Shown piece by piece: positions 6,717 to 29,750 of a DNA stretch of 43,780 nucleotides. This DNA comes from Acidovorax facilis (GTDB lineage Bacteria; Pseudomonadota; Gammaproteobacteria; Burkholderiales; Burkholderiaceae_C). The position numbers were made by a program, and so were the translations under genes. Numbering within the stretch: position 1 is the first letter of the stretch; the number at the start of each line of letters is the position of its first letter. Below the pieces are notes generated by a model. That model ran no database searches and was not told the DNA's origin. It saw only the letters and a program-made list of their open reading frames with translations. The stretch is from assembly GCF_023913775.1 (NCBI RefSeq), contig NZ_JAMXAX010000034.1:1-43780 (forward strand). Reading direction: 5' to 3'.

Positions 6717-6717
6717 G

Positions 6718-8420: not shown

Positions 8421-8438
8421 AAGGGTTCTCCTTGAAGT

Positions 8439-9812: not shown

Positions 9813-9824
9813 GGCTGTGCTCCG

Positions 9825-13024: not shown

Positions 13025-13033
13025 GGCATCCCC

Positions 13034-13306
13034 CTACACGTCCAGCAGCGGCTTGTGCTTGATGTGCCGCGCGAAGACCTGCATGAACTGCGGATCGACG
13101 CGCGCGCCCCACACCGTCAGCGAATGGCCGACGATCCAGAGCACCACGCCCGGAATCCACAGTTGCAGGCCCAGCCCGACAGCAGCAGCCAAGGTGCCGT
13201 TGGCAATCGCCACGGTGCGCGGCGCACCGCCCATCAGAATCGGCTCGGTCAGCGAGCGATGCAAAGGCACCTCGAACCCGGCCGCGAAGTTGTCTGGGCC
13301 GCTCAT
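13034..13306 (-). CDS. trbD: Conjugal transfer protein TrbD (VirB3-like)
   Basis: TrbD is the small VirB3-type inner-membrane protein that associates with the TrbE ATPase. The 90-residue sequence has the family opening (FEVPLHRSLTEPILMGGAPR), two adjacent membrane stretches around residues 30-65, and a basic C terminus (VFARHIKHKPLLDV). I took the ATG at 13306 because it overlaps the trbC stop as ATGA. A much longer open frame upstream in the same phase lies antisense-free but inside trbC, and is not the real start. Confidence 0.92.
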   Translation of the reverse strand: MSGPDNFAAGFEVPLHRSLTEPILMGGAPRTVAIANGTLAAAVGLGLQLWIPGVVLWIVGHSLTVWGARVDPQFMQVFARHIKHKPLLDV

Positions 13307-13689
13307 ACGACTGCCCCACCCGAGAAGCTGAAGAACGACAGGAAGAAGCTCGAAGCGGCGAACGCGATGGACAGACCGAACACGATCTGGATCAGCTTGC
13401 GGAATCCTCCCGAGGTATCGCCGAAGGCGAGTGCCAGGCCCGTGGCGATGATGATGATGACGGCAACGATGCGCGCCACCGGCCCCTGGATCGACTCCAA
13501 GATGGATTGCAGCGGCGCTTCCCACGGCATCGAGGAGCCGGCGGCCTGCGCGGTGCCGGCCAGGAACAGCAGCAACGCGGCCAGCAGCAGCCCTTGCGCC
13601 GCAGGGCGGGCCAGGCTGCGCAGCCGTGCGAGGTTGGGCAGACGCGAAAGCGGATTTACGGAAATACGGAAAGCAGCAACGTGCGTCAT
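13303..13689 (-). CDS. trbC: Conjugal transfer prepilin TrbC (VirB2-like)
   Basis: TrbC is the VirB2-type pilin precursor of the conjugative pilus. The 128-residue protein has a long, arginine-containing N-terminal leader, a hydrophobic segment (LLLAALLLFLAGTAQA) with a cleavage-like AQA, and two further membrane helices around residues 70-95 and 100-125 that would form the pilin body. In RP4 the pilin is cyclised by TraF; a TraF homologue is encoded at 32.6-33.2 kb, so the same maturation is plausible. Start and stop both overlap neighbours as ATGA (trbB before, trbD after). Confidence 0.92.
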   Translation of the reverse strand: MTHVAAFRISVNPLSRLPNLARLRSLARPAAQGLLLAALLLFLAGTAQAAGSSMPWEAPLQSILESIQGPVARIVAVIIIIATGLALAFGDTSGGFRKLIQIVFGLSIAFAASSFFLSFFSFSGGAVV

Positions 13690-14765
13690 GAAAGTTCTCC
13701 AGGTGGATCAAGGGACAGGGAAGGTGCAGCGGCAGGCACTGCGGAGGAAACCGGCGGCAACTCGGGAAACGGCGTTTCCAGCGCCCCCAAGGCATCCACC
13801 AGTTGGTAGCCCACGCCGTCGAAGCCGACGACACGGGCGATGCTCTCGATGCGGCGCTTGCGCCCGCGCCCGGCGATGTGGATCACCACATTGACCGCTT
13901 CGGCGATCAGCGCACGGGGTGGGTTCACCGCCACTTCGAGAATCAGTTGCTCCAGGCGCAGCAATGCGCCGATGGCGGAGCCCGCATGGATCGTGGCGAT
14001 GCCGCCCGGATGGCCCGTGCCCCACACCTTGATGAGGTCCAGCGCCTCGGCGCCGCGCACTTCGCCCACGACGACACGATCGGGACGCAGCCGCATGGAA
14101 GAGCGCACCAGTTCCTGCATGGACACCACGCCTCGGCGCGTGCGCAGTGGCACGTGGTCACGGGCGGCGCATTGCAGCTCCACCGTGTCTTCGAGCACCA
14201 GCACGCGGTCGCCCGTGGCGGCGATCTCCGCCAGCAGCGCATTGGCCAGGGTGGTCTTGCCGCTGCTGGTAGCCCCCGCGATCAGGATGTTCTGCCGCTC
14301 GCGCACCGCACGGATGAGGTAGTCCGCCTGGGCGCGGGTCATCATGCCGTCGGTGACGTAGCGCTCCAAGGGGATCACGCCGATGGCGCGCTTGCGCAGT
14401 GCGAAGGCCGGGCCTGGTGCGGCCGGGGGCAGGATGCCCTCGAAGCGTTCGCCGGTTTCGGGCAGCTCCGCCGACAACAGCGGCTGGCCGCGATGCACTT
14501 CTGCGCCGACGTGGGCCGCTACGAGTCGGATGATGCGTTCGCCGTCCGCTTCGGACAGATCCACACCCATCGGGGAACGACCCGAGGAAAGCCGGTCGAT
14601 CCACAAGGTGCGATCGGGGTTGAGCATGATTTCCACCACGTCCGGGTCTTCGAGCGCGGCGGCGATCAGCGGCCCCATTGCTGTGCGCAGCATCTGGATG
14701 CGCCGGTCCAGTGACGTGGCGGCCGATGAACGAGGTTCTGCCGGGAGTTGGGGAACGGCGTTCAT
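13686..14765 (-). CDS. trbB: Conjugal transfer ATPase TrbB (VirB11-like)
   Basis: TrbB is the hexameric VirB11-type traffic ATPase on the cytoplasmic face of the secretion channel. The 359-residue protein has the VirB11 N-terminal domain, with VVEIMLNPDRTLWID near residue 44, and Walker A GATSSGKT at about residues 164-171. LEDTVELQC forms the Asp box, and RPDRVVVGEVRGAEALDLIKVW the Walker B/His-box region followed by GHPGGIATIHA. A proline-rich tail is specific to this version. It overlaps the CopG-like gene upstream and trbC downstream by ATGA. Confidence 0.96.
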   Translation of the reverse strand: MNAVPQLPAEPRSSAATSLDRRIQMLRTAMGPLIAAALEDPDVVEIMLNPDRTLWIDRLSSGRSPMGVDLSEADGERIIRLVAAHVGAEVHRGQPLLSAELPETGERFEGILPPAAPGPAFALRKRAIGVIPLERYVTDGMMTRAQADYLIRAVRERQNILIAGATSSGKTTLANALLAEIAATGDRVLVLEDTVELQCAARDHVPLRTRRGVVSMQELVRSSMRLRPDRVVVGEVRGAEALDLIKVWGTGHPGGIATIHAGSAIGALLRLEQLILEVAVNPPRALIAEAVNVVIHIAGRGRKRRIESIARVVGFDGVGYQLVDALGALETPFPELPPVSSAVPAAAPSLSLDPPGELS

Positions 14766-15208: not shown

Positions 15209-17205
15209 AGGTCGATTCCGTCGTTGGGGTCGAGGGATGCCAGCCGGGCCGTGCGCTGCAGCGCCGGGTCAAGCTGGCGCGGGAGGGGAAGCGGCGCGTC
15301 GTCGTCATCGAGCAGCGCGAGGTCGTTGGCTGCGGATGCCTGTTCGGGTTGGTACTCGGAGACTTCGGAAAGCTCGGGCTGGCGGCGCGGGCCGCCGTCG
15401 TCGGCAGCGGCAGCGAAGCCTTCAGCGGCATCAGTGACAGAGGCGATCGGCACAGCGGGAATCGCCAACGCACTCCAGTCGTCGGCACGCGAGGGAGGTA
15501 CGTCGGCGTAGCGTCCCGCAGTCAGAACGGGCGGCGGCAGCACGCGGTGCTTGAAATTGCTGTCCGCGTAGTAGCGCAGCTTCTTGGCTTTGATCGGCGC
15601 CAAGCTGGACACCATCACCACGGCCTCATCGGGCGGAAGCTGCATGACTTCGCCGGGCGTCAAGAGCGGCCGGGCCGTCTCCTGGCGCGACACCATCAGA
15701 TGGCCCAGCCACGGCGCCAGGCGGTGGCCCGCGTAGTTGCGCTGGGATTTGAGTTCGGTGGCGGTGCCCAGGGTTTCTGAGATCCGTTTGGCGGTGCGTT
15801 CGTCGTTGGTGGCGAACGTCACGCGCACATGGCAGTTGTCCAGAATCGAATGGTTCTGGCCGTAGGCTTTGTCGATCTGATTGAGCGACTGCGCGATCAG
15901 GAAGCTGCGGATGCCATAACCCGCCATGAAGGCCAAGGCTGTCTCGAAGAAATCCAGGCGCCCGAGCGCCGGGAACTCGTCGAGCATCAGCAGCAGCTTG
16001 TGGCGGCGCTCAATGCCGTCGCTGCCGTCGAGTGATTCCGTGAGGCGCCGCCCGATCTGGTTCAGGATCAGGCGAATGAGCGGCTTCGTCCGCGAAATGT
16101 CCGATGGCGGCACCACGAGATACAGCGAGACGGGATGCTCGGCTGCAATCAGGTCGGCGATGCGCCAGTCACAGCGCGAGGTGACTTCGGCCACCGTGGG
16201 ATCGCGGTACAGGCCGAGGAACGACATGGCCGTGGAGAGCACGCCCGAGCGCTCGTTGTCGCTTTTGTTGAGGACTTCACGCGCGGCGGACGCCACCACC
16301 GGATGCGGGCCATCACCCAAGTGCGATGTGGTCATCATCCGGTGCAGCGTCAACTCAAATGGGCACGCGGGATCGGACAGGAAATTGGCAACCCCACGCA
16401 AGGTCTTGTCTTCGCCCGCATACAGCACATGCAGGATGGCGCCCACCAGCAGCGCGTGCGAAGTCTTCTCCCAGTGGTTTCGCTTCTCCAGCGCGCCTTC
16501 GGGATCGACCAGGATGTCCGCGATGTTCTGCACGTCGCGCACTTCATGCGCGCCGCGCCGTACTTCCAGCAGCGGGTTGTAGGCCGCCGACTTCGCATCC
16601 GTGGGGTTGAACAGCAGGCAGTGCGAGAAGCGCGAGCGCCAGCCTGCGGTGATGCTCCAGTTCTCGCCCTTGATGTCGTGGATGACGGCGGACGCGGGCC
16701 AGCTCAACAAGGTGGGCACCACCAGGCCGACGCCTTTGCCGCTGCGCGTGGGCGCGAACGTCAGGACATGTTCCGGGCCTTCATGGCGAAGGTACTGGTA
16801 GTCGTGCTGGCCCAGGAACACGCCGGCCGGCTGCGTGAGGCCCGCCTTGCGAATGTCCTCCTTGTTGGCCCACCGCGCCGTGCCATAAGTCGTGACCAGC
16901 TTGGATTGCCGCGAACGCCAGATCGACATGCCGATGGCAACCACCACCGCGAACAGGCCACTGCCTGCTGCAATGGCGCCACCCGTGTCAAAGACGTGGG
17001 GCGCATAGGCATCGAAGAAGAACCACCACTCGAACAGCCGCCAGGGGTGGTAGATCGGCGTGCCCAGTAGGTCGAACCAAGGCGAGCCCAGGCGTAGCTG
17101 GTAGCCCAAGGCGGCGGCTGTCCATTGTGTGGCGCCCCACACGCCGGAGATCACGATGCCGAACACCACGGCGATCTGACCGAACAGCACGTTCGTCCCT
17201 TGCAT
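15205..17205 (-). CDS. traG: Type IV coupling protein TraG (VirD4-like)
   Basis: TraG couples the relaxase-DNA complex to the secretion channel. The 666-residue protein has two N-terminal membrane segments (about residues 7-32 and 76-95), then the RecA-like ATPase domain. The Walker A region APTRSGKGVG is at 151-160 and Walker B LLMLDEFPALG at about 420. YGTARWANKEDIRKAG and FLIAQSLNQIDKAYGQ are typical VirD4/TraG stretches. The acidic C-terminal tail is variable. I chose the ATG at 17205 over an upstream start because residues preceding MQGTNVLFGQ do not fit the family. It is the first gene of the transfer operon and may be read from a promoter in the 17.2-17.4 kb gap. Confidence 0.96.
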   Translation of the reverse strand: MQGTNVLFGQIAVVFGIVISGVWGATQWTAAALGYQLRLGSPWFDLLGTPIYHPWRLFEWWFFFDAYAPHVFDTGGAIAAGSGLFAVVVAIGMSIWRSRQSKLVTTYGTARWANKEDIRKAGLTQPAGVFLGQHDYQYLRHEGPEHVLTFAPTRSGKGVGLVVPTLLSWPASAVIHDIKGENWSITAGWRSRFSHCLLFNPTDAKSAAYNPLLEVRRGAHEVRDVQNIADILVDPEGALEKRNHWEKTSHALLVGAILHVLYAGEDKTLRGVANFLSDPACPFELTLHRMMTTSHLGDGPHPVVASAAREVLNKSDNERSGVLSTAMSFLGLYRDPTVAEVTSRCDWRIADLIAAEHPVSLYLVVPPSDISRTKPLIRLILNQIGRRLTESLDGSDGIERRHKLLLMLDEFPALGRLDFFETALAFMAGYGIRSFLIAQSLNQIDKAYGQNHSILDNCHVRVTFATNDERTAKRISETLGTATELKSQRNYAGHRLAPWLGHLMVSRQETARPLLTPGEVMQLPPDEAVVMVSSLAPIKAKKLRYYADSNFKHRVLPPPVLTAGRYADVPPSRADDWSALAIPAVPIASVTDAAEGFAAAADDGGPRRQPELSEVSEYQPEQASAANDLALLDDDDAPLPLPRQLDPALQRTARLASLDPNDGIDL

Positions 17206-17413
17206 GACCCTGCCTCCATTCACGGCACAAAGACGTGCCGCAGGCATCAGGATCAGCGCCGTGGGGAGTACCGGTCAAAGACCGTTATCAGAATGTAGAT
17301 GCCGCAAAAAGCATCGTTTCAGGCAGGAGAGAGCACAGTAAGAACGCCGCTAGCTAAGGCGCATTGCGGCGTATCGAACGAGAAAAAAGAACTGCGTTGC
17401 AGGCAGCAGACAA

Positions 17414-17674
17414 TCAGAACTTGGGCGGTTCTTTGGATGGGGTGTATGGCACCTTGCCATCGCCCACGAAGCGTCGGCGCGTGGCTTCGGCCACGCGATT
17501 GCACAACGCGTCACCCAGCTTGGCCCGATCCAGCTTGCACTGCTGGCGCAGTTCCTTGAGGCGCTCAGGATTGGCCGCAAGGGATTCCACCGTCTCGGTG
17601 GAATTGGATGACTGGCCGCAGGCGGCGAGCATCGCCGCCAGCGATGACGACACAATGATCTTGAACAGGCTCAT
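17414..17674 (-). CDS. eexN: EexN-type entry exclusion lipoprotein
   Basis: This 86-residue lipoprotein has a signal peptide with lipobox LAAC (cysteine at about residue 19). The body carries ESLAANPERLKELRQQCKLDR and GDALCNRVAEATRRRF, with conserved cysteines, and a C terminus ending in PPKF. This is the pattern of the EexN family, which in IncN plasmids reduces redundant entry of the same element into a cell that already holds it. I chose the ATG at 17674 since the upstream extension lacks a signal sequence. The complete IS5-family element ends only 86 bp upstream of this start, so normal transcription into the gene may be altered. Confidence 0.85.
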   Translation of the reverse strand: MSLFKIIVSSSLAAMLAACGQSSNSTETVESLAANPERLKELRQQCKLDRAKLGDALCNRVAEATRRRFVGDGKVPYTPSKEPPKF

Positions 17675-17760
17675 GGTTTTATTTCTCCAAAGAGTGGGGC
17701 TTGAGGCAAAGGCCGCAGCAGATCCGCACGGCCTTGATAGATTCAAACGAATTTCTTTAG

Positions 17761-18915
17761 GGCAATGCTGAAAAAGTCCCCGCTGCTTCTTCAGTCTGGG
17801 TAAATTACAGGGCCATGAAGCAGCAGACCCTTGCCATGGCGGCCGACACGCAGTCGGGCTTTGAACAACACCGCAAACCCACGCGGCGCGATGAATTCCT
17901 CAAGACCATGGATGCGCTGGTGCCCTGGGCTGCGCTATGCGAGGAGATTGCCCCGCACTATCCCAAGGCCGGCAATGGACGCCCCCCCATTGGTTTGGAG
18001 CGCATGCTGCGCATTCACTTCATCCAGCACTGGTTCAACCTGGCTGACTTGGCGTGCGAGGAAGCCCTATACGACAGTGCCAGCCTGCGCCGCTTTGTGG
18101 GCATAGATCTGGGCTGCGAGCCGGTCCCAGACGCCACCACGATGCTCAAGTTCCGCCACCTGCTCAACGACAACAAGTTGGGCCAAGCACTGTTCACGCG
18201 CGTCGGCAAGGAGTTGCAGGCTCGCGGTATCAAGGTCAACACCGGCACCATCGTGGACGCCACCATCATCGGCGCGCCCAGCTCCACCAAGAACGCTGAC
18301 AAGGCCAGAGACCCCGAAATGCACCAGACCAAGAAGGGCCAGCAGTGGTATTTCGGCATGAAGTTGCACATTGGCGTGGATAGCCAAACCGGGCTGACCC
18401 ACAGCGCGGTGGTCACGGCGGCCAACGTGCATGACAAACACCCGCTGCCCGATTTGCTGCACGGCAACGAACAGCGCGTCTACGGCGACTCGGCCTACGC
18501 CAGTCAGAAAGCACTGATAGCGAGTAAAGCACCCCAAGCCAAGGACTTCACCAACCAGCGCACGCGACGTGCGGGCGAGGTGAACGAGGTGCAGCGGGCC
18601 AAGAACCGCAACAAGTCGCGGGTACGTGCCAGGGTCGAGCATGTCTTTGCGGTGATCAAGCGCCTGTGGGGATTCACCAAGGTGCGCTACCGTGGGCTAC
18701 AAAAGAACGCCACGCGCGCATTCACGGCCTTGGCGCTGGCCAACATTTACCTGTGCCGCAGTCATCTGTTGGGACAGGTGCGCCCGTAAGGGCGGAAATC
18801 GGGCCTCAGCGCCCCGCGAACTGCCCAAATGGGCCGCGCGAGAGGCATAAAAGTCCAAAAAACTGCGTCATCCAGGTTTGCGCGGAAATTTTTCGACGGC
18901 TTGTTCAGCGTAGCC
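17761..18915 (+). mobile_element. IS5-family insertion sequence, complete
   Basis: The element is 1,155 bp. The left end starts GGCAATGCTGAAAAAG and the reverse complement of the right end starts GGCTACGCTGAACAAG; 16 of the first 22 positions match, giving imperfect terminal inverted repeats. TTAG stands directly outside both ends (17757-17760 and 18916-18919), a 4-bp target duplication of the YTAR type expected for IS5. One transposase gene fills most of the element. The intact target duplication shows a direct insertion without later rearrangement. It separates the cargo operon from eexN and traG. Confidence 0.9.
17815..18789 (+). CDS. IS5-family transposase
   Basis: This 324-residue DDE transposase excises and inserts the surrounding element. 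The N-terminal part carries the DUF772-type region (IGLERMLRIHFIQHWFNLAD and DSASLRRFVGIDLG). The first catalytic aspartate lies in TIVDATIIGAPSSTKN, the second in VYGDSAYAS, and the glutamate in RARVEHVFAVIKRLWGF, which fits the IS5 Y-R-E-K signature. No frameshift or stop interrupts it, so it appears functional. It is the only plus-strand gene between the TRAP receptor gene and the MocR gene. Confidence 0.95.
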   Translation: MKQQTLAMAADTQSGFEQHRKPTRRDEFLKTMDALVPWAALCEEIAPHYPKAGNGRPPIGLERMLRIHFIQHWFNLADLACEEALYDSASLRRFVGIDLGCEPVPDATTMLKFRHLLNDNKLGQALFTRVGKELQARGIKVNTGTIVDATIIGAPSSTKNADKARDPEMHQTKKGQQWYFGMKLHIGVDSQTGLTHSAVVTAANVHDKHPLPDLLHGNEQRVYGDSAYASQKALIASKAPQAKDFTNQRTRRAGEVNEVQRAKNRNKSRVRARVEHVFAVIKRLWGFTKVRYRGLQKNATRAFTALALANIYLCRSHLLGQVRP

Positions 18916-18972
18916 TTAGCGCAAGAATGCTGACTTGCACACGAATGGGTCGCCGTGCGCCCTTCTAGAGCG

Positions 18973-20134
18973 TCATGCGCGGCTTCTGCTGGGCTCGCCG
19001 CATGTTGCTGCTAGCGCCAGCGCGAGAATTGCCATGACCGCTCCGACGGCACAGGTGCCGTTCCATCCGAAATGGGAGAACGCGAGTCCTCCCAGGCCCG
19101 CCCCAATGGAACCCCCAAGAAGCATGGTCGCGATAAACACCGTATTGAGGCGGCTGTGCGCCGTGGCATCGAGAGCCAGTGCCCGTGCATGGTTCGCGAC
19201 TTGAGACGATTGGACACCTATGTCCATCAGCAACACGCCCACAGCAAGCGCCCATAAACTGCCTGGCAAGGCGATGAGCAAGACGAAAGCGAGGATGACC
19301 AGCGCCGTCCCGGCGCGAATCACCGCGGTCAGCGAGGCGACCGGCCGCCGGCGCGGCGGCCACACCAACCGCGCCGATCACCGCCATCATTCCGGTCGCC
19401 GACGGTCCCAATTGGTAGGGTTCACCGGCAAGCAACACCGCAAGGTTCGACCAGAAGGCCAGAAAGGCTGCGAAGATCAGCGCTTGTATAAGGACAGCGA
19501 TCCGCAATGTCCGGTGCTCGGCTAGCAGTAGCCATAGCGATCCCAGCAACGCGGCATAACTCGGAGTTGCTTTCGGATGGACCTTTGGCAATCGCCATGC
19601 AAAGAGGAGCGCCATTGCAAACATGGCTCCGGCGGCAGCAAGAAACATGGCCCGCCAACCCCACCATTCCGTGACACCGCCGCTGATCGTTCTTGACAGA
19701 AGAATGCCCAGAAGAATGGCGCCCGTGATCAAACCAAGCGCTTGGCCTCTGGATGCAATGGGCGCAATGTGAACCGCAAGCGGAACGATTTGTTGCGCAA
19801 CGGTGGAGAACAGACCGATCATGAAGCTGGCCGCGATCAGCAGCCACAACGTTGTCGCAATTGAGGCTCCAAGTAATCCCAACGCAAGTGCAACAGTCGT
19901 GAGAACGATCAGTGCCCGGCGTTCAAACTTATCACCCAGGGGCGCGAGAAAAATGACCCCCAAGGTATTGCCCGTTAAGGCGGCCATCGGGATCGCGGCC
20001 ACGACGGCAGGCGTGGTGCCGAACGCAATGGAAAGCTCGGCAAGCATGGGTTGGCTGTAGTAGGTATTGGCAACCGCCAATCCTGCTCCCGCCGCAAGGA
20101 GAGGCATCGTCTTGCCATCTAGGTTTTTCTTCAT
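18973..20134 (-). pseudogene. MFS transporter, frameshifted
   Basis: The N-terminal 270 residues (20134 down to about 19325) form a typical major-facilitator protein. MKKNLDGKTMPLLAAGAGLA and NTYYSQPMLAELS open it, and about eight membrane helices are visible. The usual DKFERR loop motif lies between helices 2 and 3. After GRLADR the frame runs into non-membrane sequence, while the next frame continues with AVIRAGTALVILAFVLLIALPG and four more helices to a stop at 18973. The two parts together make a full 12-helix transporter, so one indel near 19325 has broken the gene, or the read contains an error. A good ribosome site (GGGAGGAAAT) precedes the start. It follows lysR closely and was probably its co-transcribed efflux partner. 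Confidence 0.85.
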
Positions 20135-20149
20135 GTTCCAATTTCCTCC

Positions 20150-21055
20150 CTATCGTCCAGATGACGTGACACACGACGGAACGGCAACGACTCGCTCAAC
20201 GAACCGCGACAGTCTTTCGGACGGTTCCCTATCTAGCCGCAGCAGATAGGTCGTCAGCACTGGTGGGCGTCCGGCCAAGGGGCGCGAAACGATGCCTTGT
20301 TCTCGGCCGCCTGCGATCTGCGAGGCGCCGGCCAGTCCCAGCGCCAACCCCGCCGCGACCATTGCCATCATTAATTCGCAGGACATGACCTGTTCAGCGA
20401 CCAGAGGCTTCTGATCCGCGACGCGCAAGATGCGCTCGATCTGCTGGCAATAGCCCTCGCAGAACTGTGGGTCGCCCATCACCAGCGGATAGCGGAGCAC
20501 TTCATCGAGCGGAATGCGCTTGTATGCCAGCAAGGGATGGCGGGCCGGCAAGGCAACGTGCAGCGGATCGCTCCAGGCCTCCACCGCCAGGATGCCGTCA
20601 CCCACGTTGGCCGATTGGGCGAGGCCCACGTCGTACAGGTCTTCATGCAGCCCCTTGAGCTGCTGCGCCAGAGAGACCTCAAACAGGCGGATTTCCACCT
20701 CAGGTTCTTCCTGTCGGCACAGTGCCAGCAAGGCCGGCAAGCGTGAGGGGGTCATGCCATCGGACAGCGCGATGCGCAACTGACCATGGAAGCCATTGGC
20801 GGACGCCTTTACACTGTCGCGGGCTTGCTGCAAGGCCATGAAAATGCGCGGAACATGCTCAAGGAACAGGTTGCCGGCACGCGTCAGCCGCGTGCTGCGA
20901 GACGTGCGAACGAATAGCTGCTCGCTCAGGTCTTCTTCCAACTCCTTGATGGCGCGCGACAGCGGCGATTGCTCCATATGCAGCCGCTCGGCGGCGCGGG
21001 CGAAGTGGAGTTCTTCGGCCACGGCCAGGAAGCAACGCAGGTGCCGCAATTCCAT
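20150..21055 (-). CDS. LysR-family transcriptional regulator
   Basis: This 301-residue LysR-type regulator starts with a winged helix-turn-helix (MELRHLRCFLAVAEELHFAR, then LHMEQSPLSRAIKELEEDL) over residues 1-60. An effector-binding domain follows, from about GQLRIALSDGMTPSRLPALL. The ATG at 21055 is 11 bp after the glyA stop on the same strand, and the stop at 20150 is 15 bp before the MFS start. It therefore lies in one transcription unit with the PLP-gene cluster rather than divergent from its target, which is unusual for LysR proteins. Its inducer is not known. Residues beyond LysR position 250 look normal in length. Confidence 0.93.
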   Translation of the reverse strand: MELRHLRCFLAVAEELHFARAAERLHMEQSPLSRAIKELEEDLSEQLFVRTSRSTRLTRAGNLFLEHVPRIFMALQQARDSVKASANGFHGQLRIALSDGMTPSRLPALLALCRQEEPEVEIRLFEVSLAQQLKGLHEDLYDVGLAQSANVGDGILAVEAWSDPLHVALPARHPLLAYKRIPLDEVLRYPLVMGDPQFCEGYCQQIERILRVADQKPLVAEQVMSCELMMAMVAAGLALGLAGASQIAGGREQGIVSRPLAGRPPVLTTYLLRLDREPSERLSRFVERVVAVPSCVTSSGR

Positions 21056-21066
21056 GTGCAAAACCG

Positions 21067-22338
<1,272 letters not shown>

Positions 22339-22349
22339 GGTGGGGAGTC

Positions 22350-23180
22350 CTATCGTCGGTTTCGTTGAGGTTGGGTTGTTGGGGATGGCTCGGGCGTGTC
22401 CATGTCCAGTTGCCTGCGGATACTGCGGATGAGATCGCTGGCAGCGGCCAGGGCTTCGGCCGCTGACTTGTCCGCCAGGCTCTCGATGAGCCAAGCACCA
22501 ATGACGACGGCATCGGCGCTCTGGGCGATGTCGCGGGCGGTCTGCGCGTCACGGATGCTGAAGTCGATGCCCACGGGAATGCGCACATGGCGGCGAATGC
22601 GTGCCGGCGTCTGGTCGCCAGTGAGGGCCTTGACGCATAGGCAGCAGAGGTAACCGCTGGCGCGCTCGGCCACCGCCCGCACGTGGCGCTCCGTGGCGGA
22701 CGATGCCAACCGCAAGATCATGTCGAGGCCGCAATGGCGCAGTTGTGCGGCCAGCCCATCGGCGGCTTCTGGCGGGCAATCGACCACCAGCACACCATCC
22801 ACGCCCGCGCTGGCCGCGTTCTCGGCAAAGGCGCCCGACTGACGCAATTGGTCGTAGCGTTCGATGGGATTTGCATAAGCCCTCAGCACCACGGGCGTGG
22901 CGCCATCCGCCTCGCGGAACTGTCGTACCTGGTCAAGGACTTGCAGCAGTCCAACCCCTGAGCGCAATGCCTGTTCGCCAGCGGCTTGGACAGCCGTGTC
23001 TTCCGCCGATGGATCGGAGAACGGCACGCCCAATTCAATGACGTCGGCTCCAGCCTCCACCAGCACGTGCATCAACGCAGGCGTGATGTCCGCGTAAGGG
23101 TATCCCGCGACGACATGGGCAATCAGCACCTTGCGACCTTGTTCGCTCAGACGCTCAAACGTGAGGGCAAGGCGATGCAT
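22350..23180 (-). CDS. Divergent TrpA-like protein (tryptophan synthase alpha family)
   Basis: This 276-residue TIM-barrel protein is a clear homologue of the tryptophan synthase alpha chain, which splits indole-3-glycerol phosphate into indole and glyceraldehyde 3-phosphate. Starting at the ATG at 23180, the numbering matches the enteric enzyme exactly: Glu49 in [11 protein letters not shown] is retained. The second catalytic acid Asp60 is replaced by Glu60, and the following Gly-Pro is Asp-Thr. The tyrosine equivalent to Tyr175 is cysteine (GYLCCLC). The phosphate-binding GFG and GS motifs are GIDF and GA. No trpB is present. The gene lies between argD-like and glyA genes. The altered site suggests a different substrate, possibly unphosphorylated, or a non-catalytic role. 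A GTG start at 23207 is possible. Confidence 0.85.
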
Positions 23181-23194
23181 GGTTGGACCCACAG

Positions 23195-24436
23195 TCACCT
23201 CACACACTCCGCCTGCATTGCGGCGTCAGGCGCCGCAGGACTCGAACGACTGAGCGCAGGAACGGAGGACAGCAAGGGGGCGATACGCGCCACGATGTCG
23301 TCAATCTGCGCTTCGTCGCAGATCAGCGGGGGCAGCAAACGGATGGTGGTGTCGCGTGTCACCGTGATGAGCAAGCGCTGCTCCTCCAACGCCCGCCCGA
23401 CCAGTTCCTTGCAACTTCTGTCCAGCTCGATGCCTGCCATCAGGCCCTGGCCCCGGATTGCCAGCACATTCGGGTGATTACCCAGCGTCTTTTGCAAGCC
23501 TGTGAGCAGGCGGTCTCCCAGGACAGCGGCCCGCTGCGGCATGCTGTCCCGCGCCATGATGTCGAGCACAGTGCAGCCCACGCGACAGGCCAGCGGATTG
23601 CCGCCAAAAGTCGATCCATGCTGGCCGGGCGAGAACAGGTCGGCCGCCTCACCTCGCGCCAGGCACGCGCCGATGGGAAAGCCGTTGCCCAGCGCCTTCG
23701 CCAAGGTCATGACGTCGGGTGTGATGCCCGCATGCTGGTGCCCAAACCAGGCCCCGGTACGCCCCATGCCCGCCTGGATCTCATCAATCATCAGCAGCCA
23801 GCCACGCTCGTCGCACAAAGCACGCAGTTCCCTCAAATAGTCGGCACTGGCGACGCGGATGCCACCTTCACCCTGTACGGGCTCGATCAGCACCGCAACG
23901 ATGCCGGGTGATTGGTCTGCCGCATTGCGCACCGCCTCGATATCGTCGTACGGAACCCGCAGGAAACCAGGCATCAGGGGCTCAAAACCTTGCTGCTTCG
24001 CCGGATTGCCGGTGGCCGAGAGTGTTGCCAGGGTGCGGCCATGAAAGCCGTTCTCCATCACAAGAATCTGTGGCTGCGCCACCTGCCTGCGGTGCCCGTG
24101 CAGGCGCGCGAGCTTGAGTGCGGTTTCGTTGGCCTCGGCGCCAGAGTTGCAGAAGAAAACACGCTGCATGCCCGCCAACGCGCACAGGCGTTCGCCCAGT
24201 TGCTCCTGCCAGTCGATGCGGTACACGTTGGAGGTGTTCAGCAGCAGGCCGGCTTGCTCGGCGATGACGGCGGCGATCTCCGGATGGGCATGGCCCAGGC
24301 TGGTGACGGCGACGCCCGCGATGGCATCCAGGTATTCCACGCCGTTCTCGTCCCACAGAAGCGCGCCGCTGCCGCGTGCGAATGAGACGGGTTGGCGGGC
24401 ATAGGCCCGCATCAAGTGGGAAGTGGTGTGTTGCAT
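23195..24436 (-). CDS. ArgD-like class III aminotransferase
   Basis: This 413-residue PLP-dependent aminotransferase resembles acetylornithine aminotransferase. Family stretches include [52 protein letters not shown], the aspartate in [13 protein letters not shown], and the PLP lysine at about residue 247 in [28 protein letters not shown] is also present. All key residues are intact. The acceptor could be acetylornithine or another omega-amino compound, and the context is not an arginine cluster. The start at 24436 lies inside the end of the kinase gene (25-bp overlap), and the stop is 14 bp before the trpA-like ATG. Confidence 0.9.
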
Positions 24437-25368
24437 GAACGGTGACTCCAATGAGATTCGGAAAACGCTTGGCGGATACGCACCAGTTCGCGGGCGTGGG
24501 TCTGGTTGTTGGCCTGAGGGCTGACCACTCGGCTCGGCAGCACCAATTCGGCGCATTGCGCGTTGTGGGTGTGGCGCAGCGCCTGCACGATCATTTGGCA
24601 AGCCCTGGCAATGGCTTCGGGCAAGGTGGCACCGTTGAGCCAATGCCCCGTCAGGGCAGCGCTGAACAGATCGCCTGTTCCTTTGGGCACGGCGTCGATG
24701 CGTGCATGCGTGATGACGTGCGCTTGCTCGCGGGTGACAAATACAACCTGCATTTCACCGTCCGCCCAGGTAGTCGGCGCCGCACTGGTCACCGCGATCC
24801 ATTGGGTGCGGCCCGTCAGCAAGGTTCGGGCCGCTGCAACGACGCTCTCCATGTCATCGACCGGGCGGCCTGTCAGGTGCGCCAGCTCAAACCCGTTCGG
24901 TGTCAGTCCATGGGCCAGCGGCAGCAAATGCTGGCGGTAGGCTTCGGCCATGCCGGTATCGACATAGATGCCGCGATCGTGATCGCCCATCACGGGGTCG
25001 ATGACCACGCGCAGGCCCGCGCGCTCGGCCTGCAAGGCTCGCGTCCAGCGGGCCAGCACCTCGGCTTGCCCCGGATTTCCCAGGTAACCGGCCAGGACGG
25101 CGCGCAGTGCGTGCAGCGCGCCGCGTGCCGACAAATCCTGTAGATATCCCTCGAACCATTCGACGGGCAGCGCACCGCCGTGCATCGTCGGATAGTGCGG
25201 CGTGTTGCTGAACACGACGGTCGGCACCGCAGCCACCGACAGGCCCAGCGACTCCAAGGTCGGAACCGCGACGTTGTTTCCTACCCGGCCGTAGACCACC
25301 TGCGATTGCACCGAGACCACCTCCAGCGATAGCGGTCGAGATACCCTAGAAGATGGGGTTTCGATCAT
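24412..25368 (-). CDS. pdxY: Pyridoxal/pyridoxine kinase (PdxY/PdxK type)
   Basis: This ribokinase-family protein phosphorylates pyridoxal or related B6 vitamers to the 5'-phosphate in the salvage pathway. The N-terminal [20 protein letters not shown] matches the PdxY/PdxK vitamer-binding region, [14 protein letters not shown] and [13 protein letters not shown] follow, and the anion-hole and catalytic aspartate lie in [14 protein letters not shown] (aspartate at about residue 233). The GTGD form resembles E. coli PdxK more than its PdxY. The protein is 318 residues, about 30 longer than usual, from an N-terminal extension and a C-terminal tail. The start overlaps the amidotransferase stop (ATGA at 25365-25368). 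Its presence among PLP enzymes is the strongest clue to the cargo's theme. Confidence 0.88.
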
Positions 25369-26084
25369 GGAGCCTCCCTTGGACAGGCCGCCTCAATCTC
25401 GTCCAGCCAGGCGGTGAAGGCCGCCCGTGCCGCCAGCGGCAAGCTGGATTGCAAGGCTTGTGCGTCGGTGCGTAATGCGCGCGGGTCGATGCCAGCCTGC
25501 GCCAGTTCGCAGGCATGGCCAACTAGCCAGCGCTCAATCTGGCGGGGGTCCGCTTCCAGATGGCATTGCAGCGCCAGCACATGGCGGCCCACGCTGAAAG
25601 CCTGATTGGCGCAGCTTGGCGTGCCCGCCAGTCGCGTTGCCCCAGCGGGAATGTCAAAGCGGTCGCCGTGCCAGTGCAGCACCGGCACCTTGCCCAGCAC
25701 CGCCAGCGGTGACGCCTCGCCCTCCGGCGTTAGCGTCAGTGGCGCAAAACCGATTTCCTTGACACCCATGCTGGCGACACCGGCACCGAGCGCCCGCGCG
25801 ATCAGTTGCGCGCCCAGGCAGATGCCCAGCAGCGGGCGCTGGCTTTTCAGTCGCTGAAGAATCACTGCGAGTTCGTCGCCGATAAAGGGATAGATGGCGT
25901 CATCGAAGGCGCTGATCGGCCCACCCAGCACCACCAGCAAATCTGCCGCTGCCGTGTTCACAGTGCGCAAGTCGTCGGTGGTGGCATCCAGGTAGCGCAC
26001 GGCATAACCGCGTGCCGCGAGTAGCGGCTCCAAGGTGCCGAGGTCTTCAAAGTCCAGATGGCGGATGGCCAGGGCGGTTTTCAT
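25365..26084 (-). CDS. Class I glutamine amidotransferase (GuaA-like domain)
   Basis: This 239-residue stand-alone amidotransferase has a full catalytic triad: Cys89 in [16 protein letters not shown], His175 and Glu177 in [22 protein letters not shown] provides the oxyanion segment. It resembles YfeJ-type proteins related to the GMP synthase glutaminase domain and is not the PLP-synthase subunit PdxT. Such enzymes hydrolyse glutamine to supply ammonia or act on gamma-glutamyl compounds. No synthetase partner is encoded beside it, so the acceptor is unknown. Start and stop overlap yggS and the kinase gene as ATGA, indicating tight coupling with the PLP genes. Confidence 0.88.
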
Positions 26085-26896
26085 GGTTGTGCCTCCTCTG
26101 TGCTGGGTTCGCCGGGCCAGTAGTGGCTGTCTGGCAAAGGGCGGGCACCGAAGATGGCCTGGCCGACGCGCACCACGGTGGCGCCTTCCTCGATGGCGAT
26201 CTCGAAGTCACCGGACATACCCATGGAAAGCTCGTCCAGCCCGATGCTCGCAGGAGCGCTTTGCCGCAGTTGGTCGCGTAGCGTGCGCAGGAGAATGAAG
26301 CACTGGCGCACCCGCTCAGCCTCGGCGGAAAACAGCGCCAGCGTCATGAGCCCGCGCACACGCAGCGCCGGGAACGCGGGCAGCGCGCGCAGGAAGGCCG
26401 GAACGTCCTCGGGCGACAGCCCGTACTTGCTGGCCTCGCCCGAGGTATTGACCTGCACAAACACATCCAGCGAGCGGCCTTCGGCTTGCAGGCGACGCTC
26501 CAGTGCCTCGGCCACGCGCAGGCTGTCCAGTGCCTGGAACTCGCTGGCGAAGCGCGCCACCAGCTTGGCCTTGTTGGTCTGCAGGTGGCCGATGACCGAC
26601 CAATGCAGGTCGGTCAAGTCTTGCATGGCTTCCCATTTGCCGAAGGCTTCCTGCACCTTGTTTTCACCCAGCATCCGGCAGCCAGCCGCATGGGCCAGGC
26701 GCAGGCTGGCCTCGGGCTTGGTCTTGCTCACCGGCAGCAGGCGCACCCCGGCCGGGTCGCGGCCGACGCGGTGGCAGGCGGCGTCCATGCGGGTGCGCAC
26801 CGCCGCCAGGTTGTGTTGGAAGTCATCGACTGTGGCCGCCTGCGGATAGCGGCCATGCTGGTCGTGACGGGTCTGGGTGTCCGATGGCTCAGGCAT
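26081..26896 (-). CDS. yggS: PLP homeostasis protein (YggS/PLPBP family)
   Basis: This alanine-racemase-fold protein binds PLP and balances vitamin B6 and amino-acid pools; it has no known enzymatic activity. The 271-residue sequence has an N-terminal extension, then HNLAAVRTRMDAACHRVGR and the PLP lysine at about residue 58 in LLPVSKTKPEASL. GENKVQEAFGKWE, HWSVIGHLQTNKAK, VQVNTSGEASKYG, and LSMGMSGDFEIAIEEGATVVRVG (split here by the family phosphate-binding loop) follow the family. The ATG at 26896 overlaps the end of the BenE gene by 8 bp, and the stop overlaps the amidotransferase start. Residues upstream of MPEPSDTQ in the same frame do not fit. Confidence 0.95.
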   Translation of the reverse strand: MPEPSDTQTRHDQHGRYPQAATVDDFQHNLAAVRTRMDAACHRVGRDPAGVRLLPVSKTKPEASLRLAHAAGCRMLGENKVQEAFGKWEAMQDLTDLHWSVIGHLQTNKAKLVARFASEFQALDSLRVAEALERRLQAEGRSLDVFVQVNTSGEASKYGLSPEDVPAFLRALPAFPALRVRGLMTLALFSAEAERVRQCFILLRTLRDQLRQSAPASIGLDELSMGMSGDFEIAIEEGATVVRVGQAIFGARPLPDSHYWPGEPSTEEAQP

Positions 26897-28145
26897 TGGC
26901 CCCCTCCCTCTTGATCGCGGGTTGGGCGGCCGATGCCGCAGTGGCCGGCCGCCCACGGCGCGGCAGTGTTCCATTGAGCACGGCATAGGCAATTAGGCCG
27001 ATCACCAGACCCCAGAATGCGCCGCCAATCCCCAACAGGCTGATGTTGGCGGCGGCCGCCAGGAAGGTGATCAGCGACGCTTCGCGCGTCCTCACATCGG
27101 CCAAGGCGGTGGCGAGGCTGCCGCCGATAGTGCCCAGCAGCGCCAGCCCCGCCAGCGTGGTGATGAAGGTCGCTGGGAAGGCCATGAAGACGGCGGCCAG
27201 CGTCACGCCGAACACGCCCACGAGGATGTAGCACACGCCTGCGGCGATGCCCGCGATCCAGCGTTTGGACGGATCTTCGTGCGCCTCCCGGCCCGTGGCG
27301 ATGGCGGCCGTGATGGCGGCGATGTTGAAAGCATGCGAGCCGAACGGTGCCATCAGCAGCGAACCCAGGCCGGTCACCGTCACGATGGGGTTGGCGCTGG
27401 TCTTGAAGCCGTCATTGCGCAGCACCAGCATGCCGGGCATGTACTGGCCGGTCAGGGTGATGAGGAACAGCGGCAGCGCCACGCTCAACAAGGCGTTGAG
27501 TGAAAAAGCGGGCATGGTGAAGACTGGCGTGGCCAGCTTCAGGCTCAACCCCGACAGATCGACGCGATCCTGCATCAGCAGGAAGGCCAGACCCAACACC
27601 AGGATGCCCACCACCGCATAGCGTGCGGAGCATCGCTTGAACACCACGTAGGCGAGGATCAGCAGTCCGGCCAATAGCGGGTCGATGCTCATGCCACCAA
27701 AAGCCCCAATGCCAAACTGCAGCAGGATGCCCGCGAGCAAGCCTGCGGCCACGCCTGGCGGGATCAGACGGATGACACGCTCGAACCAACCCGACAGCCC
27801 CAGCACCACAAATGCCGCTGCTGAAATCAGGTAGGCCCCCACGGCTTCAGCATACGGGGTGGTCGCCAGCGCCGTGACCAGAAACGCCGCCGCAGGCGTG
27901 GACCACGCGGTGATGATCGGCTCGCGGGACATCCAGCTCAGGATGATCCCCGTCACGCCCACACCGATGGAAATCGACCACACCCAAGAGGCCGTCAGTT
28001 CCGGGCTCAGGCCCGCGACCTTGGCGGCCTGGAACACCAGGATGAATGTGCCGCCGTAGTTGACGATGACCGAGATCAGTCCGGCTACGACTGGATGGGT
28101 GAGATCGTTCCAGCGAACGGTTGAAGGTGAAGGGACGGATGACAT
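26889..28145 (-). CDS. benE: BenE-family transporter (benzoate/H+ symporter family)
   Basis: This 418-residue inner-membrane protein has about 12 hydrophobic segments. HPVVAGLISVIVNYGGTFIL and SIGVGVTGIILSWMSREPII with AWSTPAAAFLVTALATTPY match the BenE/YdcO family. GSHAFNIAAITAAIATGREA is the other conserved stretch. Family members are annotated as benzoate-proton symporters, yet no aromatic catabolic gene is nearby. In this operon the substrate may be a B6 vitamer, an amino acid or an antimetabolite; that is inference. It is the first gene of the cargo operon, and the divergent MocR gene starts 108 bp away, so its promoter is probably MocR controlled. Confidence 0.9.
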   Translation of the reverse strand: MSSVPSPSTVRWNDLTHPVVAGLISVIVNYGGTFILVFQAAKVAGLSPELTASWVWSISIGVGVTGIILSWMSREPIITAWSTPAAAFLVTALATTPYAEAVGAYLISAAAFVVLGLSGWFERVIRLIPPGVAAGLLAGILLQFGIGAFGGMSIDPLLAGLLILAYVVFKRCSARYAVVGILVLGLAFLLMQDRVDLSGLSLKLATPVFTMPAFSLNALLSVALPLFLITLTGQYMPGMLVLRNDGFKTSANPIVTVTGLGSLLMAPFGSHAFNIAAITAAIATGREAHEDPSKRWIAGIAAGVCYILVGVFGVTLAAVFMAFPATFITTLAGLALLGTIGGSLATALADVRTREASLITFLAAAANISLLGIGGAFWGLVIGLIAYAVLNGTLPRRGRPATAASAAQPAIKREGANA

Positions 28146-28177
28146 GGCCTGACGGTGACTCCTGATAAATCGGTTAG

Positions 28178-28216
28178 ATGGCTTGTGAAACGTATTTATA
28201 GATTTAAAATGGCTTG
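28178..28216. promoter_or_regulatory. Direct repeats in the divergent benE/mocR promoter (candidate MocR operator)
   Basis: ATGGCTTG occurs at 28178-28185 and again at 28209-28216, 31 bp apart, about three helical turns. The flanks are alike (TTAGATGGCTTGTG and TAAAATGGCTTGGTG). Between them lies an AT-rich stretch that on the minus strand contains TATAAA at 28195-28200, a candidate -10 for the cargo operon. MocR/PdxR regulators are known to bind two direct repeats in divergent promoters, which fits this spacing and position. Confidence 0.55.
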
Positions 28217-28253
28217 GTGTTCCCCGCCATTTTTTTGATTAGATACAGACCAA

Positions 28254-29750
28254 TTGTTCAAACATGCCCAACTTGAATCCGTCAAAGCCTGGGTCGGCGA
28301 CCCGGCCCATGGCGCCTTGCCCCTGCATGCGCGCATTCAGCGGGCCATCCGGCAACTGATCCTCGACGGCGCGCTCGATGTAGGCAGGCCATTGCCCGCG
28401 TCACGCGCCTTGGCGAAGTCCTTGGGGGTGTCCCGCGATACGGTCGAGTCGGCCTACAGCCAGTTGCACGCGGAAGGTTTCATCGAGCGGCGCGTGGGCA
28501 GCGGCAGCTTTGTGTCGGAGCGGGCACAGCGCTTGCCAGGGCGGGGGGCAGTACAGCGCACGAGGGCACCCAAGGAAACGTTGCGGCTCAGTCGGCGCGG
28601 CAGCGCCATGTTCCAGGGCGGTGGCGTGCGCGACTTCCTGACACCACGCCCATTCGCGCCCGGTGTACCGGAAACGCGCAACTTTCCACTACCGACCTGG
28701 GAGCGGCTGGAGCGGCAGGTGTTGAAGGAATACGGCACCCTGGCGCTGCTGCACAGCCCACCACAGGGAATGGCGCCGCTGCGGCGTGCCATCGCGGATT
28801 ACGTCAATCTCGAACGCGGTGCGCGCGCCACACCCGAGCGTGTGCTGGTGCTGACCAGTTCTCAGCAAGCCCTGACCCTGTGCGCCACGGTGTTGCTCGA
28901 TGCGGGTGACCAGATATTCATCGAAGACCCCGTGTACCACGGCGCGCGTAAGGCGTTCGACGCCGCCGGACTGGAGTGCGTGCCCGTGCCATTGGATGCA
29001 GACGGCCTGCGGGTGGAGCATTTGATTGAGGCAAGCAAGGCGCCAGGCGAACCGGCCAGGGCGGTGTTCCTGACGCCATCGCACCAATTCCCCACGGGGG
29101 CGACACTGTCGCTAGACCGGCGCCTGGCCGTCATTGAATGGGCCAGAGAGCACCAGGGCTGGATCATCGAAGACGACTACGACAGCGAATTCCACTACGC
29201 AGGTAAACCCACGGCCTGCGTACAGGGGCTCGATCCGCACGAGCGGACGATCTACATCGGCACCTTCACCAAATCGCTGTTTCCCGGCCTGCGCATCGGC
29301 TACATGGTGTTGCCGATGCAGTTGGTGGCGCCTATGACAGTGGCCCGCACCTTGCTGGATGGACACAGCGCGCCCATCCCGCAACTCACGCTGGCGCGCT
29401 TCATCGAAGGCGGCCACTTCGGCGCCCATGTGCGCACCATGCGCGCCGTCTACGCCGAACGGCGTGACGTGCTGGCGCGGCTGGTGCGCCAGCATCTGGC
29501 TGACTTCGTAGAACCGAGGGTGCCGGCCGGGGGCATGCAGATGCCCTGTGTGTTCATCCGCGACATCCCCGAGCGCGAGGCCGTGGACTCCGCACGCCGA
29601 GCGGGAATCGACCTGCTGGGACTGACGGCGCTGCATACGTCGAGCAAGCACAAGGCAGGCTTCCTCATGGGATTCGCCGCTCACGCCCCGCATGAGCTGG
29701 ATGTTGCCGTCAAGAAACTTGCAAATGTGCTACGTGCGCTGTGCCGCTGA
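28254..29750 (+). CDS. MocR/PdxR-type regulator (GntR domain fused to aminotransferase domain)
   Basis: This 498-residue regulator joins an N-terminal GntR winged helix (ALPLHARIQRAIRQLILDGA, LPASRALAKSLGVSRDTVESAY) to a type I aminotransferase-fold domain from about residue 125. The domain binds PLP as effector: the Schiff-base lysine is at about residue 340 in GTFTKSLFPGLRIGY, with IIEDDYDSEFHY before it. Known members such as PdxR control B6 synthesis or salvage, GabR controls GABA use. The start is a TTG at 28254 since no ATG occurs in frame nearby. It is divergent from the PLP-gene operon and is the obvious candidate to control it in response to PLP or a PLP-amine adduct. Confidence 0.92.
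   Translation: MFKHAQLESVKAWVGDPAHGALPLHARIQRAIRQLILDGALDVGRPLPASRALAKSLGVSRDTVESAYSQLHAEGFIERRVGSGSFVSERAQRLPGRGAVQRTRAPKETLRLSRRGSAMFQGGGVRDFLTPRPFAPGVPETRNFPLPTWERLERQVLKEYGTLALLHSPPQGMAPLRRAIADYVNLERGARATPERVLVLTSSQQALTLCATVLLDAGDQIFIEDPVYHGARKAFDAAGLECVPVPLDADGLRVEHLIEASKAPGEPARAVFLTPSHQFPTGATLSLDRRLAVIEWAREHQGWIIEDDYDSEFHYAGKPTACVQGLDPHERTIYIGTFTKSLFPGLRIGYMVLPMQLVAPMTVARTLLDGHSAPIPQLTLARFIEGGHFGAHVRTMRAVYAERRDVLARLVRQHLADFVEPRVPAGGMQMPCVFIRDIPEREAVDSARRAGIDLLGLTALHTSSKHKAGFLMGFAAHAPHELDVAVKKLANVLRALCR

What the first reader, a model, noticed from the sequence alone, without database searches (positions are those of the whole stretch)
18973..29750. Mobile PLP-centred operon as ICE cargo
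Seen directly: nine minus-strand genes (BenE-type transporter, YggS, class I amidotransferase, pyridoxal kinase, ArgD-like aminotransferase, TrpA-like protein, GlyA, LysR, MFS) are packed with ATGA or short overlaps or gaps under 16 bp, and a MocR/PdxR regulator is divergent. Known: PdxY/PdxK salvages B6, YggS buffers PLP, GlyA, ArgD and MocR bind PLP. Inference: the set is a functional unit that manages PLP or tolerates a PLP-directed inhibitor (for example a cycloserine-like amine), by supplying extra target enzymes, cofactor salvage, a buffering protein, uptake and efflux. A biosynthetic or catabolic route using GlyA, a TrpA-like lyase and an aminotransferase is the alternative. I know of no described system with this gene set.
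Basis: partly seen in the sequence, partly recalled or inferred. Interest (0 to 1): 0.8.

Follow-up and report, generated by a model that had tools for sequence, protein, structure and literature searches.

The report
Mobile vitamin B6 enzyme operon
An element with DNA-transfer genes, in a bacterium that is probably an Acidovorax, carries a block of genes beside a vitamin-B6-type regulator that is predicted to bring in and activate vitamin B6 and would supply spare copies of enzymes that need it; a 2016 study already predicted most of this gene set as a B6 regulon, and one member, the tryptophan-synthase-like gene, lacks its usual partner gene and many of its conserved residues.

Summary
The genes are there as described: BenE, YggS, amidotransferase, PdxK, ArgD-like, TrpA-like, GlyA, LysR and MFS on the minus strand, spaced -25 to +15 bp, with a divergent MocR. 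The MFS gene is frameshifted. The regulator passes NCBI's PdxR cut-off. The set is not undescribed: Suvorova & Rodionov (2016, passages) list pdxK, BenE, COG325 (= YggS), ArgD-type, GlyA, a GuaA-type amidotransferase, acetyltransferases and DapA as PdxR-regulon members. In 29 loci with a close MocR the genes vary in presence but never break one order, and 29 of 37 loci have AATGG-N14-CCA-like sites at -46 from MocR. Conjugation genes flank the operon here and in several relatives. Not found in print: trpBA as members, and carriage by conjugative elements. The window's TrpA looks like a relic: no trpB, catalytic and phosphate-site residues replaced, site-specific constraint lost. Best reading: a mobile PLP-homeostasis operon, likely induced when PLP runs short, giving B6 salvage plus spare PLP enzymes. 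Signal and BenE substrate are inferred. Tolerance to a B6 antagonist remains a live rival.

The parts
28254..29750 (+). MocR/PdxR-type regulator (GntR HTH + aminotransferase-like domain)
   Evidence: PF00392 + PF00155; NF052282 PdxR 407.5 bits, cut-off 320; the lysine of 'TFTKS' lines up with 'AFSKS' of the closest solved relative, 7pq9 (that this is the PLP lysine is recalled)
28207..28233 (.). Putative operator AAATGG-N14-CCATTTT in the divergent promoter region
   Evidence: Only strict copy in the window; the looser pattern lies at -46 of MocR in 29 of 37 loci, against 98 of 4167 other 170-nt windows
26889..28145 (-). BenE-family transporter, putative pyridoxine importer
   Evidence: PF03594, TIGR00843; the B6 role is a prediction of PMC5320631
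26081..26896 (-). YggS / PLP homeostasis protein
   Evidence: TIGR00044 above cut-off; 'VSKTKP' lysine conserved with E. coli YggS 1w8g
25365..26084 (-). Class I glutamine amidotransferase-like protein
   Evidence: NF005458 341 bits, cut-off 250; nearest solved chain 9xfs, E 6.7e-85
24412..25368 (-). Pyridoxine/pyridoxal/pyridoxamine kinase
   Evidence: NF006034 415 bits, cut-off 342
23195..24436 (-). ArgD-family class III aminotransferase
   Evidence: TIGR00707 462 bits, cut-off 410; 2eh6 E 4e-102
22350..23180 (-). Eroded TrpA-like gene without trpB
   Evidence: 32 of 109 positions invariant in 79 presumed housekeeping TrpA loci are changed, against 8-10 of 109 in four copies beside trpB; formerly invariant sites vary like variable sites
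21067..22338 (-). GlyA isoform (serine hydroxymethyltransferase)
   Evidence: PF00464; 87-96% identical to a GlyA in five other genomes, 60-66% to the second GlyA of all six genomes searched
20150..21055 (-). LysR regulator, after GlyA
   Evidence: PF00126/PF03466; same place in L089, L090, L128
18965..20134 (-). MFS transporter gene, frameshifted in the window
   Evidence: PF07690; second part in another frame at 18973-19368; intact in L128
15205..17247 (-). TraG coupling protein of the carrying element (trb genes at 5457-14765)
   Evidence: NF010450 1218 bits, cut-off 674; TrbG, TrbF, TrbL, TrbJ, TrbE and TrbB over a cut-off; TrbI (5457-6716) below its cut-off
17414..17746 (-). EexN-family lipoprotein, boundary of the cargo
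   Evidence: NF033894 over cut-off; same border in L089 and L090
29999..32539 (-). DUF3363-type relaxase on the other side of the cargo
   Evidence: PF11843; 81% identical in L089

Best explanation
This operon, which lies between conjugation genes, is most likely a mobile copy of a PdxR (MocR-type) vitamin B6 regulon, predicted to switch on when PLP runs short so as to import B6 (BenE), phosphorylate it (PdxK), hold or deliver PLP (YggS) and supply spare PLP-dependent enzymes (GlyA, the ArgD-like aminotransferase and, in relatives, TrpB with its partner TrpA). Shown: the gene set, the fixed order with variable content, one operator-like site conserved next to MocR, dN/dS well below 1, a separate GlyA isoform, carriage next to conjugation genes, and loss of constraint on TrpA where trpB is missing. 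Inferred: PLP shortage as signal (from PdxR studies cited in PMC5320631), BenE substrate, isozymes as back-ups comparable to the zinc-free paralogues of Zur regulons (my recall). Proposed and untested: the spare GlyA matters because PNP, made when PdxK phosphorylates imported pyridoxine, inhibits E. coli GlyA in vitro (PMC10202323), and YggS limits PNP build-up.
For: Close MocR and the same gene order in pBYT1-1, pKAZ5, a gammaproteobacterial MAG and genomes of other families. PdxR-regulon membership of nearly every gene in PMC5320631 (passages). Operator-like site at -46 in 29 of 37 loci. dN/dS 0.04-0.28 for all genes except TrpA of the TrpB-less pair. The window's GlyA is 87-96% identical to a GlyA in five other genomes against 60-66% to the second copy in all six. 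PdxJ in 13 of 13 carriers searched, so the operon is a conditional extra, not a supply for auxotrophs. Of the enzymes beside the kinase and the amidotransferase, GlyA and the ArgD-like protein are PLP enzymes and TrpA is the partner of one.
Against: No expression, transport or binding data. No sigma-70-like promoter was found for the minus-strand operon; the one hit points towards MocR and does not exceed chance. The amidotransferase has no evident PLP role. pBYT1-1 adds DapA, lactate permease and a PEP-mutase-family lyase, which look catabolic. Regulon GlyA differs from the hosts' GlyA at only 10 fixed positions (9 against 6 sequences) and I saw no special PLP-site signature. MocR scores slightly higher on the rhizopine MocR model than on PdxR, though below that model's cut-off. 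PdxR data on PLP as anti-activator come from Firmicutes and Actinobacteria. 6 of 37 loci lack the operator pattern in the 170 nt searched, and many loci are close relatives.
Confidence: 0.55

Rival explanations
1. Tolerance unit against a PLP-directed antagonist: extra target enzymes, salvage, YggS, acetyltransferase and efflux protect against an amine or a B6 analogue.
For: GNAT genes lie inside the operon in L089 and L141 and MFS genes next to it in L089, L090 and L128; E. coli yggS mutants are more sensitive to 4-deoxypyridoxine, and GlyA is inhibited by its phosphate (PMC10202323, passages); mobility suits a conditional stress.
Against: 20 of 29 operons lack PdxK and 20 of 29 lack GlyA; only BenE and YggS are in 25 of 29 each. 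A B6 importer plus a B6 kinase would be expected to worsen poisoning by B6 analogues, since 4dPN toxicity largely depends on PdxK.
Confidence: 0.25
2. A catabolic or biosynthetic route (amino-acid aldol chemistry by GlyA, transamination by the ArgD-like enzyme, uptake of an aromatic acid by BenE) for an unknown compound.
For: BenE family is named for benzoate; DapA, PEP-mutase-family and permease genes in pBYT1-1.
Against: Enzymes are present or absent one by one in relatives while the order stays, which a linear pathway would hardly survive; regulator over the PdxR cut-off; trpB absent and trpA eroded here.
Confidence: 0.12
3. Unrelated genes gathered by chance in an element hot spot.
For: Element cargo regions are mixed; an IS-type transposase and a broken MFS gene lie at the edge.
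Against: Same order in 29 loci without a break, a conserved operator-like site, purifying selection.
Confidence: 0.02

Closest known systems
PdxR regulons of MocR transcription factors (Suvorova & Rodionov 2016, PMC5320631)
   Same: MocR often divergent from its targets; pdxK, BenE, COG325 (YggS), ArgD-family, GlyA-family, GuaA-family amidotransferase, RimI/RimL acetyltransferase, DapA listed as members (passages)
   Different: trpB/trpA are not named in the main text ('trp' and 'tryptophan' 0 occurrences; its supplementary tables were not open to me), and 'mobile' has 0 occurrences
Tn4371-like conjugative elements (label recalled, from no call)
   Same: trb transfer genes, TraG, EexN, DUF3363 relaxase, RovC/DUF2285-type regulator, ParB-like protein around a cargo gap
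   Different: No integrase or end seen on the 43780-base contig; cargo is B6 related
Tryptophan synthase alpha chain
   Same: TIGR00262 above cut-off; E of 'IELGVPF' kept
   Different: Changes at D60, G61, P62, M100, G101, Y179, S182, G185, V214, G215, G217 (numbering of L009); no trpB beside it
Zur-controlled zinc-free paralogues (recalled)
   Same: Importer, cofactor handling and spare enzymes under one cofactor sensor (analogy only)
   Different: PLP, not zinc; cofactor sparing not shown

Membership tests
PdxR regulon (MocR subfamily) | GntR DNA-binding domain fused to an aminotransferase-like domain with the PLP lysine | tested here: met
   (identity of the lysine recalled)
PdxR regulon (MocR subfamily) | Divergent orientation and a conserved operator in the common intergenic region | tested here: met
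   Divergent; site at -46 in 29 of 37 loci; binding itself untested, and comparison with the published PdxR motif not made
PdxR regulon (MocR subfamily) | Targets in PLP synthesis, salvage or transport | tested here: met
   PdxK over cut-off; BenE listed as putative pyridoxine transporter
PdxR regulon (MocR subfamily) | PLP-responsive transcription | not testable with these tools
   Needs expression data
Tn4371-like ICE | trb mating-pair genes, TraG, relaxase around cargo | tested here: met
   same layout in L089
Tn4371-like ICE | Site-specific integrase and integrated ends | tested here: inconclusive
   Window is a whole contig and I named no integrase on it; in G064 TraG, TrbE and a weak integrase match (27%, L166) and the relaxase (L167) flank the operon in a 5.45-Mb contig
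Tryptophan synthase alpha | Catalytic Asp60 and phosphate-site residues | tested here: not met
   D60E, Y179C, G215D, G217S, S to A in VIGSW; residue roles recalled. L128 keeps D60 but not the others
Tryptophan synthase alpha | Adjacent trpB partner | tested here: not met
   Absent between ArgD and TrpA here and in L128; present in L089, L090, L009, L141
Serine hydroxymethyltransferase | Family profile and PLP lysine motif THKT | tested here: met

The most novel reading that the evidence does not exclude
Conjugative elements spread a cofactor-shortage back-up kit: one PLP sensor that turns on B6 import, B6 phosphorylation, a PLP carrier and a replaceable set of spare PLP enzymes (GlyA, ArgD-like, TrpBA) that keep amino-acid and one-carbon metabolism going when PLP is scarce or poisoned, a B6 counterpart of the Zur zinc-sparing response.
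Probability: 0.3. Interest if true: 0.7.

Novelty: new variant of a known kind. Interest (0 to 1): 0.42.

Why it matters
Bacterial B6 importers, and the reason why PdxR regulons hold extra GlyA, ArgD-type and YggS genes, are open questions. A compact, repeatedly mobilised operon with one conserved operator-like site, natural variants that lack different genes, and hosts that can make their own PLP gives a direct way to test both. It also shows how an operon sheds an enzyme: trpB gone, trpA eroding while its frame mostly stays open.

Tried and rejected
Rejected: a TrpA-like lyase with a new activity in this copy. Sites at least 97% invariant in 61 sequences of the type found beside trpB (P0009-P0069; gene context seen for few) vary among 7 near-full-length sequences of the window type as often (26 of 95) as the variable sites do (54 of 173). 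In 131 control subsets of similar divergence the two figures were 3.4% on average (at most 8.2%) and 50%. Against pure decay: window/L128 dN/dS is 0.37 (0.22-0.59), not 1. The eight database sequences are open frames (one, P0008, is a partial), but a protein database selects for that; open frames may be kept so that translation runs on to glyA (inference). L127 has only a broken stretch with the same signature.

Led nowhere: Rfam and tRNA scans of the window (0 hits); E. coli genomes (no match in 'near' mode); plasmid names in papers (2 papers, neither about this operon from the listing); regulon-type TrpA searches in two families (0 of 198; 63 of 160 rang, but the threshold let housekeeping TrpA in, so I draw no prevalence from either); C. 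metallidurans CH34 (L092, 24.8 kb) has YggS and PdxK side by side and no other queried gene at E <= 1e-15. BLAST of the window operon against plasmids gave 41 records, none covering 80%.

Not independent: L009 and L090 are 98-100% identical over the shared part; several genus relatives are close. L123 offers only 4.3 kb upstream of MocR, so its missing genes count for less.

Full report
Observation. The minus-strand set and the divergent regulator are real. With starts set by the annotated pBYT1-1 homologues the spacings are -8, -4, -4, -25, +14, +11, +11 and +15 bp. Consensus scans of 18900-28400 do not exceed shuffled expectation (1 promoter-like site, expected 1.4, and it points towards MocR; 8 terminator-like sites, expected 6.6), so they neither support nor break a single transcript. 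The MFS gene is frameshifted.

Surroundings. Left of the cargo are an EexN lipoprotein, TraG and trb genes, right of it a DUF3363 relaxase, a RovC/DUF2285-type regulator and a ParB-like gene. pBYT1-1 of Pseudomonas sp. BYT-1 has the same layout with the operon at the same place. In one search genes of this kind also lie beside the operon in L090 (pKAZ5, EexN only), L124, L128 and L137; L009 and L130 instead sit beside another integrase (54% identical to each other). The remaining loci with a close MocR showed none of the eight marker proteins nearby except a weak transposase match in L127. So at least two kinds of mobile element seem to carry it. The name Tn4371-like is recalled, from no call.

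Relatives. MocR at 81% or more is in 6 of 47 genomes of the genus, at 78% or more in 16 of 399 of the family; at E <= 1e-220 in 3 of 399 of the order and 2 of 369 of the class; at E <= 1e-180 in 7 of 398 of the phylum. Each count includes the window's own genome, and the samples overlap. That patchiness fits horizontal transfer. I compared 37 loci. In the 29 with a close MocR (75% or more to the pBYT1-1 protein: window, L089, L090, L009, L121-L145) BenE is present in 25, YggS in 25, the amidotransferase in 16, PdxK in 9 (in L127 only a short hit), ArgD-like in 11, TrpB in 4, TrpA in 6, GlyA in 9, LysR in 8; the order BenE-YggS-amidotransferase-PdxK-ArgD-TrpB-TrpA-GlyA-LysR is broken in none. 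Two rows, L009 and L090, are nearly the same sequence. The other 8 loci are more distant, with BenE-MocR alone, GNAT-MocR or other arrangements. I ran no chance model for the shared order itself.

Operator. The pattern AATGG-N(10-16)-CCA starts exactly 46 bases before the MocR start in 29 of 37 loci (spacer 14 in all but L152), at another place in 2 more (L148, L150), and is missing in 6 (L131, L144-L147, L149). It occurs in 98 of 4167 other 170-nt windows of the same loci and in 1.7% of shuffles. It was derived from these loci, so this shows conservation, not binding. The window has one strict copy, 28207-28233.

Selection. Pairwise dN/dS by my own Nei-Gojobori script is 0.04-0.28 for every gene pair tested apart from TrpA in the TrpB-less pair window/L128 (0.37, bootstrap 0.22-0.59; 0.12 in the TrpB-bearing pair L089/L141). 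Several dS values exceed 1 and are near saturation. LysR of L141 is probably not the same orthologue (0.24).

TrpA. The four copies next to trpB change 8-10 of 109 positions that are at least 97% invariant in 79 presumed housekeeping TrpA loci; the window and L128 change 32 of 109 each. Of 609 database proteins at E <= 1e-75 the best 120 were listed: eight are 81-99% identical to the window copy (the first is probably its own cluster), 61 are 58-68% identical, and of those the four whose motifs I printed are canonical apart from P0053, which differs in part; the other 51 are mostly 53-57% identical and look like housekeeping TrpA, except P0078 (64% over 77% of the query). Site-class analysis shows loss of site-specific constraint in the window-type group. 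L127 carries a broken stretch with the same signature. The simplest history is loss of trpB in an ancestor of these copies and erosion of trpA since. Residue roles are recalled.

GlyA. The window's GlyA is 87-96% identical to a GlyA in five other genomes of three families (window's family included) and 60-66% identical to the second GlyA of all six genomes, so it is a travelling isoform. Ten fixed differences separate 9 regulon from 6 host sequences; I saw no obvious PLP-site change.

Known background. PMC5320631 (passages seen; not the whole text, supplements closed) already lists the membership and predicts a link between BenE and GlyA. It reports from earlier work that apo-PdxR activates and PLP acts as anti-activator in Gram-positive bacteria. 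PMC10202323 (passages): PNP and 4dPNP inhibit GlyA in vitro, yggS mutants are more sensitive to 4dPN, toxicity largely depends on PdxK. PMC13353753 (search listing): PLPHP is hypothesised to carry PLP to enzymes. PMC9127364 (passages) shows that several PLP enzymes are damaged by the reactive enamine 2-aminoacrylate. PMC4944035: outline and abstract only. My paper searches listed no paper that I could tell to be about this operon on a mobile element or with trpBA; only the top 20 rows of the large searches were seen, and most subscription papers are not in the library.

Mechanism. All 13 carriers searched encode PdxJ, so the operon does not feed auxotrophs; a conditional response is more likely. 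The best reading is PLP shortage or PLP-pathway stress, met by import, phosphorylation, PLP handling and spare enzymes. A specific, untested prediction is that regulon GlyA resists PNP. Shown: anatomy, conservation, selection, mobility context. Inferred: signal, BenE substrate, purpose of the isozymes. The antagonist-tolerance rival shares most of this machinery and is separated from it only by experiment.

Verdict. A real, conserved operon on elements with conjugation genes; its kind was predicted in 2016; new here, as far as my searches go, are trpBA membership, recurrent carriage by conjugative elements and the erosion of TrpA.

Noticed in passing
17815-18789: DDE transposase (IS5 type, label recalled) lies between the EexN gene and the broken MFS gene; an 87% identical stretch is elsewhere in the genome.
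   Followed up: no
L090 (pKAZ5) 17003-19974: Beyond the operon, pKAZ5 has a class V aminotransferase annotated as phosphoserine aminotransferase, a short aminotransferase annotated as HisC and a further MFS gene: more PLP enzymes nearby.
   Followed up: partly
L089 24530-27878: pBYT1-1 adds a DapA-family gene, an L-lactate permease and a PEP-mutase-family gene after MocR and MFS; the PEP-mutase-type gene recurs in L090 and L009.
   Followed up: partly
L150: On a Phytobacter plasmid a 63% identical MocR faces a GNAT gene, with the operator pattern at another distance, next to predicted oqxAB and catA genes.
   Followed up: no
L124 and L125: One same-genus genome (G011) holds two separate MocR-BenE-YggS-amidotransferase operons.
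   Followed up: no
P0015, P0029: Proteins close to the trpB-linked TrpA type are named from Pseudomonas aeruginosa (93 contigs) and Pseudomonadaceae (46 contigs); their gene context was not seen.
   Followed up: no
L009 TrpB 8733-10007: Regulon TrpB differs from 74 presumed housekeeping TrpB at 13 of 245 near-invariant positions in all four copies (two of them near-identical), including P to M before HPYP.
   Followed up: partly
25365-26084: The amidotransferase has a close solved relative, 9xfs (E 6.7e-85), whose function I did not look up.
   Followed up: no
28231-28256: The MocR start is TTG with no clear ribosome site in the 23 bases printed upstream; CCAATTG or CCATTTG stands there in all 25 aligned loci.
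   Followed up: no
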